A stretch of DNA of 35,964 bases, from positions 1-35,964 of the forward strand of contig VGPU01000022.1 of NCBI GenBank assembly GCA_016882525.1. Reading direction: 5' to 3'. The notes beneath the pieces were generated by a model. The model was not told the DNA's origin, made no database searches, and was given only the letters and a program-made list of their open reading frames with translations. The stretch is from Cyanobacteria bacterium M_surface_10_m2_119. GTDB taxonomy: Bacteria > Cyanobacteriota > Cyanobacteriia > PCC-6307 > Cyanobiaceae. Every line of letters begins with the position of its first letter. The stretch's first letter is position 1. The translations under genes were made by a program, and so were the position numbers. Of this stretch, positions 14,102-22,579 are shown in pieces.

Positions 14102-15301
14102 ATGGCTGATGACTGGCAGAGGGCCCTGGCGCGCTGGGTGGCCGCGGAGCTGATCGATCCGGCCAGCGCCGCTGCGATCGAGCGCTGGGAGCAGGCGCGG
14201 GTGCGGCCGGGGCTGCGGGCACCGATCCTGGTGTGCCTGGGGCTGGGGGTCGTTCTGCTGGCCGCCGGCCTGCTGCTGCTGGTGGCGGCCCACTGGGATG
14301 AGATGGCGCCCGGGGGGCGCTTCGGCCTGGCGGTGGCCGTGCTGATTGCGCTGCATGGGGCGGCGGCCTGGAGCAGCCGGGGCTTTCCAGCGCTGGCGGT
14401 GGCCCTGCACGGCGCCGGCAGCGTCGCCCTGGGGGGCGGCATCTTTCTGGTGGGCCAGCTCTTCCACCTGCAGGCCCACTGGCCCGCCGGCCTGCTGCTC
14501 TGGGCCGCCGGCGCCGGCCTGGGCTGGGGACTGCTGCGCCAGTGGCCGCAGCTGGCGCTGGGGGCCCTGCTCATGCCCCTCTGGCTGGTGAGCGAGTGGC
14601 TGTGGCGCTGCCAGTCGCCACTGGGAGGCCCCCCGGGTGGCGGCTGGGTGGTGGGGGCCGTGCCGAGCGCGGCGATCCTGCTGCTGAGCCTCACCTACCT
14701 GGCGGCGCCGCGCGGCCGCGGCCCCGAACCCGGGCGCCGGGTGCTGCTCTGGCTGGGGGGGCTGGCGCTGCTGCCGGCCGACCTGATCTGGTTGCTGGCG
14801 GCGGCCAACCGGCCTGCCGATGGGCTCCATCAGCTCCTGCTGCTGCGCGGCACGTTGCCGATCGGCCTGGCCGCCCTGGGCTGGGCCATCGCCATCGGCG
14901 CACCGCTGCTGCTGGGCTGGCGGCTGCGGGGGCGGAGCTTCTGGCCCCTGGCGGTGGCGGCGGGCTGGATCCTGGCCGGGATGGCCATCCTCAGCCCGAT
15001 CACCCCCTGGAGCTACGCCTGGCATGGCCTGGGCGGCATCCTGCTGATCGCCTGGGGGGTGGGCGACAGCCGGGCCGAGCGGATCAACCTCGGCACCGCC
15101 CTGGTGGCCGGCACGGTGCTGAGCTTCTACCTGGCCGAAGTGGCGGGGCGGCTCGAGCGCTCCCTGGGCATGATCGGCCTGGGCCTGCTGTGCCTGCTGG
15201 GCGGCTGGGCCCTCGAGCAGCTGCGGCGGCGGATGCTCGCCCGCCTGACGGGCGGCGCCGGCCAGGGCCAGGCCACCCCCACGGCGGCAGAACCGGAATG
15301 A
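14102..15301 (+). CDS. DUF2157 multi-spanning membrane protein
   Basis: The 399-residue protein opens with the DUF2157 head ([20 protein letters not shown]), then has about ten hydrophobic segments, including [20 protein letters not shown] and [20 protein letters not shown], a signature stretch of the family. Its function is not known. DUF2157 genes are commonly followed by a GDYXXLXY-domain gene, and this is the case here with an ATGA overlap, so the two probably act together. It is the first gene of a four-gene overlapping set ending with an MscS channel. The start ATG 14102 follows a divergent gap that contains a 14-base direct repeat. Confidence 0.88.
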
Positions 15302-15867
15302 AGCGCCCGCTGCCACCCCTCTCCCCGCGCAGGGCGGGGCTGCTGCTGGGCCTGCTCCAGGGCAGCCTGCTGCTCAGCCTCGGCGCCGTGATGCTGGCGG
15401 ATCGGGCGCGGCTGCCACGGGCCTGGGTCCGCAGCGCCCCCCACGACCCCGACCTGCCGATCCGCGGCCGCTACGTGAGCCTGCAGCTGGTGGTGCCGCT
15501 CAGACCGGTGGGGACCGCCGCCGCGCTGCCGGCCGCGGGAACCCTCACGCCTGTGGAGCTGGTGGTGCGCAAGAACCGGCTGGAAGCCCTGGCCGCCGCA
15601 GCCGTGCCGGCCGAAGGCGTTGGCCAGGGCCGGAGGCAGGCCTGGATCGAACCGGTCGACGGCACCCCGATGGCCCGCCTGGATGCACCCGTGGCGTTCT
15701 TCATTCCGCCGGATGTGGAGGATCCCTCCCGGCGCCCCGCGGGCGAGCAGCTCTGGGTGGAGGTGACGCTGCCGCCGGACGGACCGCCCCGGCCGATCCG
15801 CCTGGGCCTGCTGCGGCCGGGGCGGGCGGAGATCGTGCCGCTGCGCTGGCGGCGGCCCCATGGCTGA
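15298..15867 (+). CDS. GDYXXLXY-domain protein
   Basis: A 189-residue protein with a single N-terminal hydrophobic segment (GLLLGLLQGSLLLSLGAVML), followed by a domain in which the family motif appears as IRGRYVSLQ (family form GDYxxLxY). The later VELVVRKNRLEAL and FFIPPDVEDPSRRP stretches fit the family as well; that last segment ends a domain seen next to DUF2157 proteins. The first motif residues are changed from GD to RG. Its ATG (15298) overlaps the DUF2157 stop by four bases, giving translational coupling. Its own stop (15865-15867) is just upstream of the solute-binding gene. Function unknown. Confidence 0.82.
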   Translation: MKRPLPPLSPRRAGLLLGLLQGSLLLSLGAVMLADRARLPRAWVRSAPHDPDLPIRGRYVSLQLVVPLRPVGTAAALPAAGTLTPVELVVRKNRLEALAAAAVPAEGVGQGRRQAWIEPVDGTPMARLDAPVAFFIPPDVEDPSRRPAGEQLWVEVTLPPDGPPRPIRLGLLRPGRAEIVPLRWRRPHG

Positions 15868-15895
15868 ACCCTGGAAGCGAACGGAGAACGGAGGG

Positions 15896-17134
15896 ATGAT
15901 GCCGGCCATGCGCCGCCCGCTCCTGACGCTGCTGGCCACCGCCCTGCTGCTGGCGGGCTGCGGCGGACGCGTGCAGGTGCCCACCCCCCTGCACCTGGCG
16001 CTGGTCACGAACAGCGATCAGCGGCTCGACAACGATCTGCGCGAGGACTTTCAGAACCGCCTGAAGCTGGTGGAACGGGGCCTGCTCCGGATCCACCCGG
16101 AGGCCACCGTCCAGGTGGCGATCTATCCCGTCGATCAGCTCCTCGCCGCGATCCAACGCCGCAGCCGCGCCGGCCTGGAACCGGATCTGCTGTTCGTGAA
16201 TGGGGACACAGCCCTGACGCTGCTGCGCGATGGCCTGGTGGTTCCCTATCCCGCCAGCCCCGAGCTTCTGCAGAGTTTCGAGCCCTCGATGCTGGAGCGG
16301 GTGCGGGATCCGCAGGGCCGACTGGCGGGCCTCCCCCTGATGGTGCAGACCCAGGTGGGTTGCTTCAACCGCCGCCAGGTGCCCGAACCGCCACGCAACC
16401 TCGACGACCTGCTGCGCCTGAGCGCCAGCGGCAGGCCCGTTGGGCTCTCTGTGGAGGCGGTGGAACTGGTGTGGAGCGCCGGCAGCCTGGGGGCCGTTCC
16501 TGCCTTGATCCAGACGCTGAAAGGACAGCCGCTCAGCCAGGCCAATCAGCAGGCCCTGGTGGGCTGGCTGGCCTGGCTGCAACAGGCCGGCGGCCAGCAA
16601 CGGGTGATGTTCTTCGCCAACCAGCAGGAGGCCATCGCGGCCTTTCTGGCTGGGCAGGTGGCATGGATTCCCTGCAGCAGCGTCAACCTGGGGATGATCC
16701 GCCGCCATCTGGGGAGCAACCTCGGCGTGGCACCGTTGCCCGATGGGCCCGGCGAGCAACGCGCCGCTCCCTTCAATCGGCTGCGGGTGATCGCCCTTGG
16801 CCGCCACTCCAGCGGCAACGCGCGCCGGCTGGCTCTGGCATTCGCGCGCTTCAGCGCCAACCCGCTCAGCCAGCGAACGATGACCATGGGGTCCCTGACC
16901 GTGCTGCCGGCCAACCGGTTCGTGAACCTGCCGCTGCAGAGCTCCCAGCAACTGCAGGCGATGCACACCGCCCTTGACCAGGGGCGGCAGACCAATGCCC
17001 TCGCCGCCCTGATCCACGGCAACGACGGTCGTCTGCCACAGGTGCAGACCCTGTTCACCCGACTGGTGTTCGGGGAAGCCACCCCGCCGGCGACGGCTGA
17101 GGCGCTGGTGCAGCTGCTGCAACCCAAGCGATGA
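15896..17134 (+). CDS. Solute-binding lipoprotein, type 2 periplasmic-binding fold (copy 1)
   Basis: From ATG 15896 the product is 412 residues. It starts with a lipoprotein signal peptide ending LLLAGC (Cys22), so it would be anchored to the outer face of the membrane. The mature part follows the family 1 extracellular solute-binding pattern: PDLLFVNGDTALTLLRDGLV, a GLPLMVQTQVGCFNRR segment, LGVAPLPDGPGE, and a late LAFARFSANPLSQR helix followed by LPANRFVN. The frame opens at ATG 15860, overlapping the previous gene by eight bases, but ACGGAGGG just before 15896-15899 and the lipobox favour the inner start. The ligand is unknown. No ABC permease or ATPase is nearby; an MscS gene overlaps its stop by four bases instead. 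Confidence 0.85.
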   Translation: MMPAMRRPLLTLLATALLLAGCGGRVQVPTPLHLALVTNSDQRLDNDLREDFQNRLKLVERGLLRIHPEATVQVAIYPVDQLLAAIQRRSRAGLEPDLLFVNGDTALTLLRDGLVVPYPASPELLQSFEPSMLERVRDPQGRLAGLPLMVQTQVGCFNRRQVPEPPRNLDDLLRLSASGRPVGLSVEAVELVWSAGSLGAVPALIQTLKGQPLSQANQQALVGWLAWLQQAGGQQRVMFFANQQEAIAAFLAGQVAWIPCSSVNLGMIRRHLGSNLGVAPLPDGPGEQRAAPFNRLRVIALGRHSSGNARRLALAFARFSANPLSQRTMTMGSLTVLPANRFVNLPLQSSQQLQAMHTALDQGRQTNALAALIHGNDGRLPQVQTLFTRLVFGEATPPATAEALVQLLQPKR

Positions 17135-18399
17135 GCGACCTCCTCCTGCAGGTTCTCAGTTGGCTGAGCTACATCGAGCGGCCCACGGTGCTGCTGCAAC
17201 TGCTGATCGTGCTGGCGGTGGTGGCGGTGGTGGCGGTGTGCCGCCTGAGCCGACGACGGCGCTGGATCCAGGGGCCCCTGGCCCTGGCCATGCCCCACCT
17301 GGGGCAACTGCTGATCGGCCTGGCCTGCCTGGTGCTCGCCGTGGGCGGGCAACCCTTCGGCCTGGCCCTGCTGCTGGCCCTGCTCTGGCTGGGCTGGAGC
17401 GCCCTGGGTCTGTTGCAGCGGCTGATGCTGCGTTGGCTGCCAGAGCGCGAGGTGCATCGCCTGGACACGCGCCTGATCCGGCCGCTCTACCTCCTGGCGG
17501 CGGCGCTGCTGCTGATCAGCGAAGTCGACAGCCTGAGCAGCCTGGCCGTGATTCCGCTGGGCCAGCTGATGGGGGTCCGTCTGAGCACCGAAAAGGTCTT
17601 TCATGCCCTGCTGGTGATCTACCTCGTGCTGGTGGGCTGCGGACCGCCAGCCGCGGGAATCGCCTGGCTGCTGCAGCGGGCGCTGGGCATGAGCGACGGC
17701 AGCCGCAAGGCCACCGAGCTGATGCTGCGCTACACGGTGGTGGGGCTTGGACTGGTGGCCGTGGCCGTGAACCTCGGCCTGAACACGACCGCCCTGATCG
17801 CCGTGGCCGGCGGGCTGTCGGTGGGGCTGGGCTTCGGCATCAAGGAGGTGTTCTCCAACTTCGTGAGCGGCCTGTGGCTGCTGTTCGAGGGTTCGGTGCG
17901 GCCCGGCGAGGTGCTGATGATCGACGGCGACCCCTGCGAGGTGCGCCGCCTCGGCCTGCGGGCCACCCTGCTCTGGCGCGACCGCGACAACGCCGAGCTG
18001 CTGATCCCCAACCAGACCTTCTTCACCGAGGCCACCACCACCTACACCGCCTCCGACCGCATGCGGCGCAGCCAGGTGAGTGTGGGGGCCGCCTATCACC
18101 ACGACCCGGCCACGGTGATCGCCCTGCTGGAGGCCACGGCGCTGGCGGTGCCGCGCGTCCTGCCGATGCCGGCCCCCAAGGCGCTGCTGCAGAGCTACGG
18201 CGACTTCGCCATCAACTACACGCTGCGCTTCTGGATCACCAACCCGATGGACAACGGCGGCATCTGCAGCGAGGTGAACCAGGCGATCTGGGCGGCCTTC
18301 CAGGCGCACGGCATCGTGATCCCCTTCCCCCAGCAGGTGCAGTACGAACTGCCCTGGCCGCCGCAGGATCCGCACACGCCGCCCGGCAGCGGTGCCTGA
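17131..18399 (+). CDS. MscS-family mechanosensitive channel (copy 1)
   Basis: A 422-residue inner-membrane channel with several N-terminal helices before the MscS core, for example at residues 19-38, 52-71, 78-95, 113-130 and 157-176. The pore helix and following segment, VAGGLSVGLGFGIKEVFSNF (from about residue 225), has the small-residue Gly/Ala/Ser packing of MscS TM3. The beta domain follows (GSVRPGEVLMIDGDPCEV, NAELLIPNQTFF) and then the alpha/beta C-terminal domain. The extra N-terminal helices resemble MscK/YnaI-type paralogues more than small MscS. Its ATG overlaps the solute-binding gene stop by four bases. Its stop abuts, base to base, the stop of the convergent 2OG oxygenase gene. 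Confidence 0.93.
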   Translation: MSDLLLQVLSWLSYIERPTVLLQLLIVLAVVAVVAVCRLSRRRRWIQGPLALAMPHLGQLLIGLACLVLAVGGQPFGLALLLALLWLGWSALGLLQRLMLRWLPEREVHRLDTRLIRPLYLLAAALLLISEVDSLSSLAVIPLGQLMGVRLSTEKVFHALLVIYLVLVGCGPPAAGIAWLLQRALGMSDGSRKATELMLRYTVVGLGLVAVAVNLGLNTTALIAVAGGLSVGLGFGIKEVFSNFVSGLWLLFEGSVRPGEVLMIDGDPCEVRRLGLRATLLWRDRDNAELLIPNQTFFTEATTTYTASDRMRRSQVSVGAAYHHDPATVIALLEATALAVPRVLPMPAPKALLQSYGDFAINYTLRFWITNPMDNGGICSEVNQAIWAAFQAHGIVIPFPQQVQYELPWPPQDPHTPPGSGA

Positions 18400-19047
18400 C
18401 TACCCCCTGGCCAGCCGCTGCAGATAGCCCTCGCGGCTGCCGGCGTTGATCCAGCCGGTGGCGATCGTTTTGCTGTGGCTGTGGTTCACCCGGCCGCGGT
18501 GAATGTGGGAGGGGCCTGCTGGAAAGATCGCGAGCTTGCCGCGCTCGGCTGCTTCGTGGTGCTGCTGCCAGAGGAACTCGGTGCCGGCCTCCTCCACGGA
18601 GTTGCAATAAAGGATCCAGGCCAGCACGCGGTGCACCGGTTCGGTGGCTTCGTCGCTGATCGTCCAGTCGCAGTGCCAGCGCTTGAAGCCCTCCCCCGGG
18701 GCGTAGCGCTGCAGGTTGAAGATCGGGTTCACGAACAGCTCCTGTTCCGGGCAACAGTCACGGAACAGCGGCCGCTCCTGCAGGTAGCGGTCCAGAGCAG
18801 CACTCACGCCCCGCAGGATCACCTTCGCCAGGGCGAAGGCCTCGGGATCGGAGCGGTCGATCGCCACCAGGCTGATGTCGGTCGACACCTTGGCGGGCTC
18901 GGCGGCGCCGCCGGCACCGGCCGCAGCCTCCGGGCCGAAGGCCACACCGGGGCGCTGCAGGTCGGGACGGCGCTCGAAGAAGGCCATCACGCCATCGGCC
19001 AGGGCCTCGAAGCCGGCATTGCGATAGGCGGCGATCAGATCGGGCAT
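18400..19047 (-). CDS. 2-oxoglutarate/Fe(II)-dependent oxygenase family protein
   Basis: A 215-residue protein with the double-stranded beta-helix iron-binding triad: His125 and Asp127 in KRWHCDWTI, and His183 in SHIHRGRV, with a likely 2-oxoglutarate-binding Lys193 in HSHSKTIATGW. The order and spacing fit the prolyl-hydroxylase-like 2OG-Fe(II) oxygenases. The target could be a protein residue or a small molecule. It lies tail-to-tail with the MscS gene and is followed upstream (rightward) by another minus-strand gene at 19092. A connection to the solute-binding/MscS operons on either side is not evident. Confidence 0.85.
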   Translation of the reverse strand: MPDLIAAYRNAGFEALADGVMAFFERRPDLQRPGVAFGPEAAAGAGGAAEPAKVSTDISLVAIDRSDPEAFALAKVILRGVSAALDRYLQERPLFRDCCPEQELFVNPIFNLQRYAPGEGFKRWHCDWTISDEATEPVHRVLAWILYCNSVEEAGTEFLWQQHHEAAERGKLAIFPAGPSHIHRGRVNHSHSKTIATGWINAGSREGYLQRLARG

Positions 19048-19091
19048 GGCAGGGTGCGGGCAGGGGCAGAGGCCAGGGCGGACTGCGGCCG

Positions 19092-19601
19092 CTAGGCCGG
19101 CTGGGCTGCAGACGGGGCTGTCTGCGGCCCTCGCCAGGGAATGGCCACGGCCCGCTCCAGGCAGCGCCAGTGGTCCTGATCCTCCACCAGCTGGGTCCCC
19201 AGACCCAGCCGCTCCAGGGCCTCCGCCACCTGGGCCAGGGGCAGCTGGTCTTGCCCGGCACCCAGGGGCAGCACCAGCACCTGGGGCTCGGCCGGATCGG
19301 CCATCACCTGCAGGTCGAGGTCGGCCAGCTCCCGCTCGAAGAACAGCCGCCGCAGCCGCAGGGCCAGGGCAGGGCCGAGGGCCTCGGCAAAGCGGCGCAG
19401 GCCCGCCTCATCGCCACTGCAGCCGCAGTTGAGCGCCAGCCAGATCAGCAGTTTGGCCCAGCTGTCGGCCGACCACAGGGGCTGAAAGCTCTCCCGGTGC
19501 TGGCGCACCAGCTCCGCCAGGGCGAAGTCGACCAGGGTGGCCTGCAGGCGCGCGGCATCCGGTGCGGCATCCGGTGCGGCGTCTGGCAGAAAAGTGGCCA
19601 T
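19092..19601 (-). CDS. Conserved hypothetical protein
   Basis: From the inner ATG 19601 the product is 169 residues. Near the N-terminus is a short tandem repeat (PDAAPDAAPDAA), encoded by a 12-base DNA repeat around 19556-19585. The ordered part contains WSADSWAKLLIWLALNCGC and LALRLRRLFFERELADLDLQ, consistent with a helical bundle followed by a beta-alpha domain (VMADPAEPQVLVLPLGAG). I do not recognise a family. The start could instead be ATG 19607, two codons earlier. It sits upstream of the 2OG oxygenase gene on the same strand (44 bases between), so they may be co-transcribed. Confidence 0.65.
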   Translation of the reverse strand: MATFLPDAAPDAAPDAARLQATLVDFALAELVRQHRESFQPLWSADSWAKLLIWLALNCGCSGDEAGLRRFAEALGPALALRLRRLFFERELADLDLQVMADPAEPQVLVLPLGAGQDQLPLAQVAEALERLGLGTQLVEDQDHWRCLERAVAIPWRGPQTAPSAAQPA

Positions 19602-19771
19602 CGGCAACGGGCCGCGGGGCGGTGAACGTCAGCCCATCCTCACGAATCGCCCATCCCACCCCGCACGATTCAGCCCCGGCGGGGGAACCAGGTTCAGGGC
19701 CGGGCCCCAACCGGTGGGCAGGGCGCCGTTCGTGGGCAAACTGCAGAGGCAACGTCCCCGGAGACGCCTCC

Positions 19772-20026
19772 ATGGCCCTGGATCTGAACGACCCGGAGCT
19801 CGAATTTTCCGATCTGGTCACGGCTTACCAGAGCTGGGTGATGGCCGTGATCAACGACGAGAAGCTGGGGGGCGAACCATTGCTCAACGACGAGATCGTC
19901 GATGATGCGATCAACGCCATGCGCTTCCTGCCCGACGTGGTGACCAGCGCCGTCGAGACCACCCTGGCCCGGGTTTACGACGTGGACCCCGACGAGCTCG
20001 CCAGCCTGCTCTATCCCGAGGAGTGA
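19772..20026 (+). CDS. Small acidic conserved hypothetical protein
   Basis: An 84-residue acidic protein that looks fully helical. It starts MALDLNDPELEFSDLVTAYQ and contains LLNDEIVDDAINAMRFLPDV and ARVYDVDPDELASLLYPE. There is no signal peptide or membrane segment. I do not recognise a domain. ATG 19772 begins the conserved-looking part; the upstream frame is open but lies in promoter-like DNA. Its stop overlaps the GTG start of the second solute-binding gene (GTGA at 20023), so translation is coupled to that gene and to the second MscS gene behind it. Confidence 0.7.
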   Translation: MALDLNDPELEFSDLVTAYQSWVMAVINDEKLGGEPLLNDEIVDDAINAMRFLPDVVTSAVETTLARVYDVDPDELASLLYPEE

Positions 20027-21311
20027 AGCGGCTGCCCGTCAGGCCGCTGGCGGCGGCCCTCGCCGCCGGCGCCCTGGCTGGGCTGAGTGGTCTGCTCACC
20101 TGGTTGGCCGCCGGAAACCTCGACCCCCCGGGTCCGAGCAAGGCCGAAGGCCTGCGGGGCACGGTGTACCTGGCCCTGGGCATTCCCTCGGAAGAGAGCT
20201 CGATCGGGAACTGCGCGAGCGCAGCACCGAGCAGGTGGAGCGCTTCAGCAAGGCGTTCCGCGCGCTCCATCCCGGCGTTTCCATTCAGCTGGTGGCCTTC
20301 CCCGAAGCCGAGCTGGTTGCCCAGCTTCCGCGGCGGCAGCAGGCAGGCCTGGGACCTGACCTCCTGCTGATCAATGCCGCCACCGCCATGCGCCTGCAGC
20401 GCCAGGGCCAGGTGCACCCCCTCTCCATGCCGGCGGAGACCCTCAACCAGCTCGAGCCGGAGACCCTGGCCCGCCTCCGCCTGCCGGATGGGCGCCTGGC
20501 CGCCCTGCCGGTGGCGCAACAACCCGAGCTGGCCTGCTTCAACCACCAGCGACTGCCCGAGGGCAGCCCCACGGATCTCGCAGGCATTCTGCGGCGCAGC
20601 AGCGAAGGGGTGCGCTTTGACCTGAGCATCGACCCCCATCAACTCTTCTGGACCCTGGGCGGCCTTGGGGCCGGCGATGCCCTGCTCAAGGCCAGCCGGG
20701 GCACTCCCCTGAGCGACGCCGAGCGACGCCAGCTGGTGCTCTGGCTGGGCTGGCTCCAGAACGCCTCGTTCCAGCAGCACATCACCTTCTTCGCCACCCA
20801 GGATGAGCTGCTGCATGGCTTGCGGCGGGGCCAACTCGACTGGATCAGTTGCCGGAGTTCCTCCATCTCCCGGCTGGAGAAGCAGCTGGGCGCCGATCTG
20901 GGGGTGGCGGCCCTGCCCGGGGGAGCGCAGGGAGCCGCCACCCCGGTGAACCGGCTGCGGGTGCTGGCCTTCGGGGCCAACTCCAGCCCTGGCCAGCGGC
21001 GCATCGCCATGGAAATGGCCCGTTTCTCGGTGAATCCGCTGGTGCAGCGCAACCTCACCCTCGAGTCGCAGGACCTGCTGCCCGTGAACCGCTTCGTGCC
21101 GGCACCAATAGCCAGCTCCACCGTGCTCAAGAGCATGGTGCTGTCGGCCGAGCAGGCCCTGGCGGCCCACCCCCTGGTGCTGGCCCTGGTGGCCAATCCC
21201 GCCGTCGACCAAGCCCTGTCGGCGGTGCTGGCGAAGGTGATCTTCGGAGACCAGGATCCGCGCGGCGCCGTCGACACCCTGATCCACGACCTCCAGCCCC
21301 CGCCGCGCTGA
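20023..21311 (+). pseudogene. Solute-binding protein, type 2 periplasmic fold (copy 2), frameshifted
   Basis: Paralogue of the solute-binding gene at 15896. The first part starts GTG 20023 and encodes an N-terminal signal anchor (AALAAGALAGLSGLLTWLAA) with no lipobox cysteine, then VYLALGIPSEE. The rest is in the -1 frame from about 20196 (ELDRELRERSTEQVERF) and runs without interruption to TGA at 21309-21311. Aligning by eye with copy 1 (LALVTNSDQRLDNDLRED), one missing base near 20191-20198 (GAAGAGAG) restores the frame exactly. The downstream part keeps all family segments (AGLGPDLLLINAATAMRL, LGVAALPGGA, VNRLRVLAFG). A restart at GTG 20235 would lack the export signal. It is a broken gene, a sequencing error, or a frameshifting gene. 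Confidence 0.8.
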
Positions 21312-22579
21312 TGGATCAGCTTCTGCACGAGATCTTCGGCTGGCTGGGTTACCTGCAGCGCGGGGCGGTGGTGGCCCAGCTGCTGCTGGTGGCCCTGCCG
21401 GTCACGGCCGCCGTGGTGCTGGGGCGCAACCGGCGCACCCCCCTGGCACTGCGGCGCTGGCTGCGGCCAGCGGCGGTGGCCGTGATTGCCCTGGTCAGTG
21501 GGCTGTTGGCCGGCAGCGGCCATCCCTGGCGCTTCAGCCTGACGCTGGGAATGCTCTATCTGGGCTGGCAGGGGCTCAACCTGCTCCACCTGGTGCTCCG
21601 GCCACTGGTGCGGGGCGAGCTGCTGCATCTGCTGGAGAGCCGCCTGCTGCGTCCCGGCTTCCTGGTGCTGGCGGCCCTGGGGGTGATCCGCCAGCTCGAC
21701 AGCGTGCAGGACCTGGCGATCATTCCCGTTGGCCAGTGGTTCGGCATCCCCCTCGACCTGGGCAAGCTGGCCCGCTCGGTGCTGATCATCTATCTGGTGG
21801 CGGTGGGATCAGCGGTGCCGGCCCAGGGCCTGGCCTGGTTTCTGCAGCGGGCCCTGGCCCTCAGCGACGGCAGCCGCCGGGCCCTCGGCCTGATGCTCCG
21901 TTACCTCACGGTGGCCATCGGCCTGCTCTGGGTGGCCAACCACCTGGGGTTCAACGCCACGGCGATCGTGGCCATCGCCGGCGGCCTTTCCGTGGGCCTG
22001 GGCTTCGGCATCAAGGAGGTGTTCTCCAACTTCATCAGCGGCCTGTGGCTGCTGCTGGAGGGGTCGGTGCGTCCCGGGGAGGTGCTGTTCGTCGACGGCG
22101 ATCCCTGTGAGGTGCGGAGCCTGGGCCTGCGGGCCGCCGTGCTCTGGCGTGACCGCGACAACGCCGAACTGGTGATCCCCAACCAGACCTTCTTCACCAC
22201 CACCACCACCACCTACACCGGCAGCGACCGGCTGCGGCGCAGCCAGGTGCTGGTGGGGGCGGCCTATCGCCACGACCCGGCCGAGGTGGTGGCCCTGCTG
22301 GGGCACACCGCCCGGGAAGTGGAGGGGGTGCTGGCCAGCCCCCCGCCCCGCGGCCTGGTACTGAGCTACGGCGACTCCTCGATCCAGTACGCCCTCCGCT
22401 TCTGGATCGCCAATCCCATGGACAACGTGAGCATCTGCAGTGCGGTGAACACGGCGGTGTGGCAGGCCTTCCGCCAGCAGGGCATTGAGATCCCCTTCCC
22501 ACAGCGGGTGCAGTACTCGATCAGTGGCCCGCCCGACGAGCTGGGCCAAGCAGAGCTGGGCGATGCGGGCCCAGGCTGA
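21311..22579 (+). CDS. MscS-family mechanosensitive channel (copy 2)
   Basis: 422 residues, the same length as the channel at 17131, with matching layout of N-terminal helices, pore helix and beta domain. The pore segment (IAGGLSVGLGFGIKEVFSNF, from about residue 222), SVRPGEVLFVDGDPCEV and NAELVIPNQTFF are almost identical to copy 1, whereas the N-terminal third has diverged more. The ATG at 21311 shares one base with the preceding stop (TGATG), so it is translationally coupled to the frameshifted binding-protein gene. If that frameshift is real, coupling may still be served by ribosomes entering at the internal start. A P-type ATPase gene follows 28 bases later. Confidence 0.92.
   Translation: MDQLLHEIFGWLGYLQRGAVVAQLLLVALPVTAAVVLGRNRRTPLALRRWLRPAAVAVIALVSGLLAGSGHPWRFSLTLGMLYLGWQGLNLLHLVLRPLVRGELLHLLESRLLRPGFLVLAALGVIRQLDSVQDLAIIPVGQWFGIPLDLGKLARSVLIIYLVAVGSAVPAQGLAWFLQRALALSDGSRRALGLMLRYLTVAIGLLWVANHLGFNATAIVAIAGGLSVGLGFGIKEVFSNFISGLWLLLEGSVRPGEVLFVDGDPCEVRSLGLRAAVLWRDRDNAELVIPNQTFFTTTTTTYTGSDRLRRSQVLVGAAYRHDPAEVVALLGHTAREVEGVLASPPPRGLVLSYGDSSIQYALRFWIANPMDNVSICSAVNTAVWQAFRQQGIEIPFPQRVQYSISGPPDELGQAELGDAGPG

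What the first reader, a model, noticed from the sequence alone, without database searches (positions are those of the whole stretch)
14102..22579. Duplicated solute-binding-protein / MscS-channel pairs without any ABC transporter
Two modules occur about 3 kb apart: a binding protein translationally coupled (four-base and one-base overlaps) to an MscS channel. The channel copies are both 422 residues and nearly identical from the pore helix through the beta domain, with divergent N-terminal thirds. No ABC permease or ATPase is near either pair, so the binding proteins do not look like import components. Coupled expression and envelope location (a lipoprotein in copy 1, a signal anchor in copy 2) suggest the binding protein senses a ligand and gates or tunes the channel, or selects an osmolyte for release. 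Copy 1 is also coupled to DUF2157 and GDYXXLXY proteins. That is inference; the gene order is seen directly.
Basis: partly seen in the sequence, partly recalled or inferred. Interest (0 to 1): 0.72.

Follow-up and report, generated by a model that had tools for sequence, protein, structure and literature searches.

The report
Binding proteins paired with mechanosensitive channels
In two phyla of bacteria (Cyanobacteria and Chloroflexota), a sugar-binding-type sensor protein anchored in the cell envelope is almost always encoded directly in front of its own pressure-sensitive membrane channel, which suggests an unrecognised kind of channel tuned by a dissolved substance as well as by membrane tension.

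Summary
The two pairs are real: an MBP-like solute-binding protein (SBP) overlaps the start of a 7-helix MscS/MscK-like channel gene by 4 bp (copy 1) and 1 bp (copy 2), and no ABC permease or ATPase lies on the contig. Corrections: SBP2 is frameshifted in this assembly; the channels are not recent duplicates (pore 72%, beta domain 84% identical; each pair has closer relatives in other strains); the 'GDYXXLXY' label has no profile support; the DUF2157 cassette was found with the pair only in this genome. The pairing is not a local accident. Of 150 listed family SBPs in Cyanobiaceae, 148 have this channel directly downstream and the other two lie at contig ends; the reverse holds for channels. 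It recurs in other cyanobacterial families and in Anaerolineae (Chloroflexota). In 103 non-redundant pairs 62 overlap, 45 by exactly 4 bp. SBP and channel trees match (r=0.88), and true partners beat swapped paralogues in 17 of 17 comparisons. Best reading: a dedicated, membrane-tethered SBP works as the detachable periplasmic sensor of an MscK-like channel. Complex formation, ligand and gating are untested. I found no paper describing it. New variant of a known kind; interest 0.72.

The parts
15860..17134 (+). SBP1: MBP-like solute-binding lipoprotein, 424 aa from the first ATG (an ATG at 15908 is the likelier start; lipobox LAGC, Cys34)
   Evidence: Pfam SBP_bac_8 E 9e-12; AF2 model pLDDT 89.7, maltose-binding-protein fold
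17131..18399 (+). MscS1: MscS/MscK-like channel, 422 aa, predicted 7 TM helices with N-terminus outside
   Evidence: Pfam MS_channel 1st/2nd/3rd; best PDB profile match MscK E 7e-49; AF2 pLDDT 78; charge pattern
17131..17134 (+). 4-bp ATGA overlap of SBP1 stop and MscS1 start
   Evidence: sequence
20023..20190 (+). SBP2 N-terminal signal-anchor segment (GTG start), in a different frame from the mature domain
   Evidence: three-frame translation; relatives read through in one frame
20196..21311 (+). SBP2 mature solute-binding domain; frame is broken between about 20187 and 20200 in this assembly
   Evidence: Pfam SBP_bac_8 E 5e-15; 39% identical to SBP1
21311..22579 (+). MscS2: second MscS/MscK-like channel, 422 aa
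   Evidence: Pfam MS_channel domains; NCBIfam best match MscK
21309..21313 (+). TGATG: 1-bp overlap of SBP2 stop and MscS2 start
   Evidence: sequence
14102..15301 (+). DUF2157 membrane protein upstream of module 1; not part of the conserved module
   Evidence: Pfam E 1e-24; absent from the other loci
15298..15867 (+).

Best explanation
A two-gene module encodes a dedicated periplasmic sensor and its channel. The SBP is held on the periplasmic face of the plasma membrane by a lipid anchor or a signal anchor. It docks on the periplasmic side of the 7-TM MscS/MscK-like heptamer, probably on the helices and short hairpin N-terminal to the pore. Opening or closing of its MBP-like cleft with a small solute, plausibly a sugar-type osmolyte, shifts the tension needed to open the channel. 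It would play the role that MscK's built-in periplasmic domain plays for external K+. Shown here: dedicated 1:1 pairing, translational coupling, co-diversification, membrane tethering, the MBP fold and the MscK-like channel with an outside N-terminus (predicted). Inferred: physical complex, ligand binding and the effect on gating.
For: 148/150 family SBPs and 148/150 channels are directly paired; the four exceptions lie at contig ends. Pairs occur in other cyanobacterial families (L107, L108, L110-L113, L168) and in Anaerolineae: 4 pairs in G513 and 13 of 18 further channel loci. 103 non-redundant pairs: 62 overlap, 45 by exactly 4 bp and 10 by 1 bp. Mantel r 0.88 against at most 0.13 permuted; true partners beat swapped paralogues in 17/17. 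SBP segments correlate with the channel's TM half (0.83-0.89) as strongly as segments within one protein do (0.85-0.88). Lipobox in at least 73 of 103 SBPs, signal anchor in 11 more. In G508 the helix resembling channel TM1 is encoded at the C-terminus of the SBP and is missing from the channel ORF, which fits an outside N-terminus and a physical complex. Channel-paired SBPs separate from eight other SBPs, most of them ABC-linked, in the tree (support 93). MscK precedent: external K+ requirement, lost on removal of the periplasmic domain (PMC9653487). Cyanobacterial precedent for an SBP-type sensor joined to a channel in volume control: GluR0 (PMC13099474).
Against: No experiment. No complex prediction could be run. 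No ligand is identified. Foldseek's best hits are sugar-binding proteins at 14-19% identity, too distant to infer a ligand. Co-diversification also follows from tight linkage and vertical descent of the pair. The region-wise signal is not specific, because the channel's C-terminal part correlates poorly even with its own N-terminal part. SBP2 in this strain is frameshifted, so either the second pair can decay or the assembly is wrong.
Confidence: 0.5

Rival explanations
1. Mechanical tether or constitutive auxiliary subunit: the SBP fold binds a polymer (peptidoglycan or periplasmic glycan), or no small ligand at all, and passes wall strain to the channel or stabilises it.
For: Membrane anchoring and dedicated pairing fit equally well; MBP-like folds often bind oligosaccharides.
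Against: The two-lobed SBP fold is kept, with conserved tryptophans and an invariant cysteine pair in cyanobacteria. Which residues line the cleft was not mapped, so this does not discriminate strongly.
Confidence: 0.17
2. SBP-assisted passage: the SBP captures an external or leaked solute and hands it to the channel as a passive import or recapture route, a channel analogue of ABC or TRAP systems.
For: The SBP fold is that of importer binding proteins, and a channel is its only constant neighbour.
Against: A passive, wide MscS-type pore cannot concentrate a solute and would dissipate gradients if open at rest (established knowledge of MscS). The channel keeps the MscS-type pore helix and beta domain.
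Confidence: 0.1
3. Co-regulation only: both genes serve the osmotic response, and the SBP works with an ABC permease encoded elsewhere.
For: The genome has 14 BPD_transp_1 matches on other contigs, at least one (C52) without a PF13416-type SBP found on its contig; orphan SBPs that use distant permeases have been proposed in picocyanobacteria (PMC8786288).
Against: Across 148 pairs and two phyla the neighbour is always the channel. The nearest plasmid homologues with annotated context mostly sit beside sugar ABC permeases. Paired SBPs form their own group in the tree.
Confidence: 0.13
4. Channel effect outside osmoregulation: the pair is a signalling device in which the channel reports ligand (ion flux or depolarisation) and tension plays little part.
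For: One family member (G508) carries a C-terminal globin domain on the channel, which suggests additional sensory inputs.
Against: Single case; the pore helix and beta domain are ordinary MscS.
Confidence: 0.1

Closest known systems
MscK (KefA) and MscM (YjeP), MscS superfamily
   Same: Best profile and fold matches of the channel: MscK E 7e-49 over residues 140-408, Foldseek E 6.5e-20. MscK is gated by tension plus an external ion sensed on the periplasmic side.
   Different: MscK has a ~500-aa periplasmic domain in the same chain and 11 TM helices. Here the periplasmic protein is a separate MBP-fold SBP and the channel has about 7 TM helices.
Maltose/sugar ABC-importer binding proteins (SBP_bac_8/SBP_bac_1; MalE, GacH)
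   Same: Pfam SBP_bac_8 match and MBP-like fold.
   Different: Partner is a channel, not a permease. Paired SBPs separate from ABC-linked ones in the tree; the MalE equivalog score is far below its cut-off (23 against 291 bits).
GluR0, the cyanobacterial ionotropic glutamate receptor
   Same: Works alike in the proposed sense: an SBP-type domain outside the plasma membrane joined to a channel, with a role in cell volume control.
   Different: GluR0 is one chain with a K+-channel pore, homologous to animal glutamate receptors; here there are two chains and an MscS pore.
The 24 MscS clusters of picocyanobacteria listed in PMC9361551
   Same: Probably includes these channels; their distribution is habitat-biased.
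   Different: The paper's text does not mention any solute-binding protein ('solute-binding' occurs 0 times).

Membership tests
MscS superfamily channel | Pore helix followed by MscS beta domain and C-terminal alpha/beta domain | tested here: met
   MS_channel_1st, 2nd and 3rd all above Pfam cut-off in both copies
MscS superfamily channel | Tension-gated conductance | not testable with these tools
   needs patch clamp
MscK | Full-length match to the MscK equivalog | tested here: not met
   152 and 138 bits against a cut-off of 991; only residues ~181-401 align
MscK | Large periplasmic domain in the same chain, 11 TM helices | tested here: not met
   422 aa, about 7 predicted TM helices, no N-terminal domain
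MscK | Gating depends on an external ligand sensed in the periplasm | not testable with these tools
   proposed by analogy
ABC-importer binding protein | SBP fold and envelope location | tested here: met
ABC-importer binding protein | Genetic association with ABC permease and ATPase | tested here: not met
   none on the contig; a channel is the constant neighbour in 148/150
Prokaryotic glutamate receptor (GluR0 type) | SBP domain and K+-channel pore in one polypeptide | tested here: not met
   separate chains, MscS pore; functional analogy only

The most novel reading that the evidence does not exclude
A widespread class of two-component channels, present in Cyanobacteria and Chloroflexota, in which a dedicated periplasmic binding protein makes an MscS-type channel ligand-dependent. 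This would add mechanosensitive channels to the partners of solute-binding proteins (ABC and TRAP transporters, chemoreceptors, kinases, glutamate receptors). Different paralogous pairs in one genome would read different solutes.
Probability: 0.45. Interest if true: 0.86.

Novelty: new variant of a known kind. Interest (0 to 1): 0.72.

Why it matters
Only MscK among studied bacterial MscS channels is known to need a ligand as well as tension. Many MscS paralogues in aquatic bacteria have no assigned role. A conserved, separable sensor would make 'why so many MscS channels?' testable: delete or swap one small gene, add candidate solutes, and record the channel. It may also explain how freshwater and brackish picocyanobacteria tune osmolyte release. 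In the 300 Cyanobiaceae genomes searched the pair occurs in about half and is missing from the listed genomes under about 1.9 Mb, apart from fragmented or incomplete ones.

Tried and rejected
Recent tandem duplication or gene conversion: rejected, since each copy has closer relatives in other strains and single-copy strains carry the pair at one or the other of the same two sites. DUF2157/GDYXXLXY as module parts: rejected. A region-specific coevolution claim for the channel's periplasmic side: withdrawn after the within-protein control. A complete SBP-MscS gene fusion: searched in 65 genomes of the G508 family, none found; only G508's SBP with a TM1-like tail. Spread to other phyla by way of plasmids: only distant SBPs of about 20-27% identity, mostly annotated as ABC or extracellular binding proteins. 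The wider Chloroflexota draw gave no new genome. Two alignment-based scans of genome contigs failed for lack of a conserved stretch; a narrower alignment worked. Literature: nine searches, no description of the pair.

Full report
WHAT IS IN THE WINDOW. The window is the complete contig C22 of a 2.62-Mb draft genome of a cyanobacterium related to Cyanobium. Module 1: SBP1 15860-17134 and MscS1 17131-18399, joined by ATGA. Module 2: SBP2 and MscS2 21311-22579, joined by TGATG. SBP2 is not intact in this assembly: a signal-anchor segment begins at GTG 20023 and the mature domain follows in another frame from about 20190. Orthologues in L003, L005 and L006 are intact. There is no ABC permease or ATPase on the contig. 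DUF2157 upstream of module 1 is real. Neither was found beside the pair elsewhere.

THE TWO COPIES ARE OLD PARALOGUES. MscS1 and MscS2 are 37% identical over residues 1-140, 72% in the pore helix and 84% in the beta domain. Orthologues in other strains are 93-97% identical over the pore and beta region. Strains with one pair carry it either between valS and the 2OG-oxygenase gene (L042, L043) or after the 85-aa gene (L040, L044); this strain has both. In the SBP tree the two copies sit in different well-supported groups with partners from other strains.

THE PAIRING IS THE FINDING. An SBP profile found matches in 138 of 300 Cyanobiaceae genomes and a channel profile in 141 of the same 300. Of 150 listed SBP matches, 132 had a listed channel directly downstream on the same strand, median gap 12 bp between the aligned domains. 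I fetched the other 18: 16 are paired and two lie at contig ends. Of 150 listed channels, 132 were paired; 16 of the other 18 proved to be paired and two start at a contig edge (in L084 the SBP is broken). Pairs also occur in other cyanobacterial families. They occur in Anaerolineae too: four pairs in one genome and an SBP upstream of 13 of 18 further channel loci. There some SBPs are tandem two-domain proteins, e.g. the 799-aa L063:7815-10214. A draw of 301 genomes across the phylum at a stricter threshold gave no new genome.

COUPLING AND CO-DIVERSIFICATION. In 103 non-redundant pairs, 62 overlap, 45 by exactly 4 bp and 10 by 1 bp; 82 lie within 20 bp. Distance matrices of SBP and channel correlate at r=0.88 (largest of 500 permutations 0.13). 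In genomes with several pairs the true partner assignment beat the swapped one in 17 of 17 comparisons, which are not all independent. SBP segments correlate with the channel's membrane half as strongly as segments within one protein do. The channel's last quarter correlates poorly even with its own N-terminus, so I make no contact-site claim.

ANATOMY. SBP1 is predicted with high confidence (pLDDT 89.7) as a maltose-binding-protein fold; its best PDB matches are GacH and MalE proteins at 16-19% identity. At least 73 of 103 SBPs have a lipobox after a hydrophobic segment and 11 a signal anchor without one; most of the rest are truncated by locus edges or frame breaks. Two cysteines (C168, C272) are invariant in all 81 cyanobacterial sequences and mostly replaced in Chloroflexota. 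The channel is predicted with about seven TM helices, a short beta hairpin at 142-152, and positive charges that place the N-terminus outside (pLDDT 78, pTM 0.45, so details are uncertain). Its closest solved relatives are MscK and MscM. In G508 the SBP ends in a helix resembling the channel's TM1 while the channel ORF starts after it. If this is not a sequencing frame error, the two proteins must meet.

MECHANISM. I propose that the SBP is the detachable periplasmic sensor of an MscK-like channel and that ligand occupancy shifts the tension threshold. The precedents are MscK, which needs external K+ sensed in the periplasm and loses that need when the periplasmic domain is removed (PMC9653487), and GluR0, an SBP-type receptor channel with a role in cyanobacterial volume control (PMC13099474). 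The ligand is unknown; the fold suggests a sugar-type solute, but this is inference only. Rivals are a mechanical tether or plain subunit, SBP-assisted passage, co-regulation with a distant ABC permease, and a signalling channel.

COMPARISON AND NOVELTY. The channel is a MscS-superfamily member but fails as MscK (no built-in periplasmic domain, 152 and 138 bits against a cut-off of 991). The SBP has the ABC-type fold but not the ABC context. The nearest plasmid homologues whose neighbourhood is annotated sit beside sugar ABC permeases in three of four cases. Nine literature searches in the open-access library found no description. A survey of picocyanobacterial MscS clusters reports their habitat bias and does not mention solute-binding proteins. 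Subscription papers were not searchable, so an earlier report cannot be excluded.

Noticed in passing
L125:1471-3204: The G508 channel carries a C-terminal globin domain (PF00042, E 5e-17), and its partner SBP ends in a helix resembling the channel's first TM helix.
   Followed up: partly
L063:7815-10214: Anaerolineae SBP partner is a 799-aa lipoprotein with two tandem SBP domains; partial second SBP domains are also seen in L150, L154 and L156.
   Followed up: partly
window 15860-17134 (C168, C272): Two cysteines are invariant in 81 cyanobacterial channel-paired SBPs and mostly replaced in Chloroflexota: possible disulphide or redox feature.
   Followed up: no
window 18400-20026: A conserved block (2OG-Fe(II) oxygenase, a 171-aa ORF and an 85-aa ORF without family match) lies next to the SBP-MscS site in most related strains examined; SBP2 overlaps the 85-aa gene by 4 bp (GTGA).
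   Followed up: partly
L084 (G191): The SBP partner appears broken over two frames while its channel is intact, a second case like SBP2.
   Followed up: no
L057: Record titled Bifidobacterium breve MAG carries this cyanobacterial-type pair and groups with cyanobacteria in both trees: probably a mislabelled or contaminated bin.
   Followed up: no
window 17131-18399, residues 311-400: The last quarter of the channel evolves discordantly from the rest of the same protein (r about 0.6), suggesting recombination or conversion among paralogues.
   Followed up: partly
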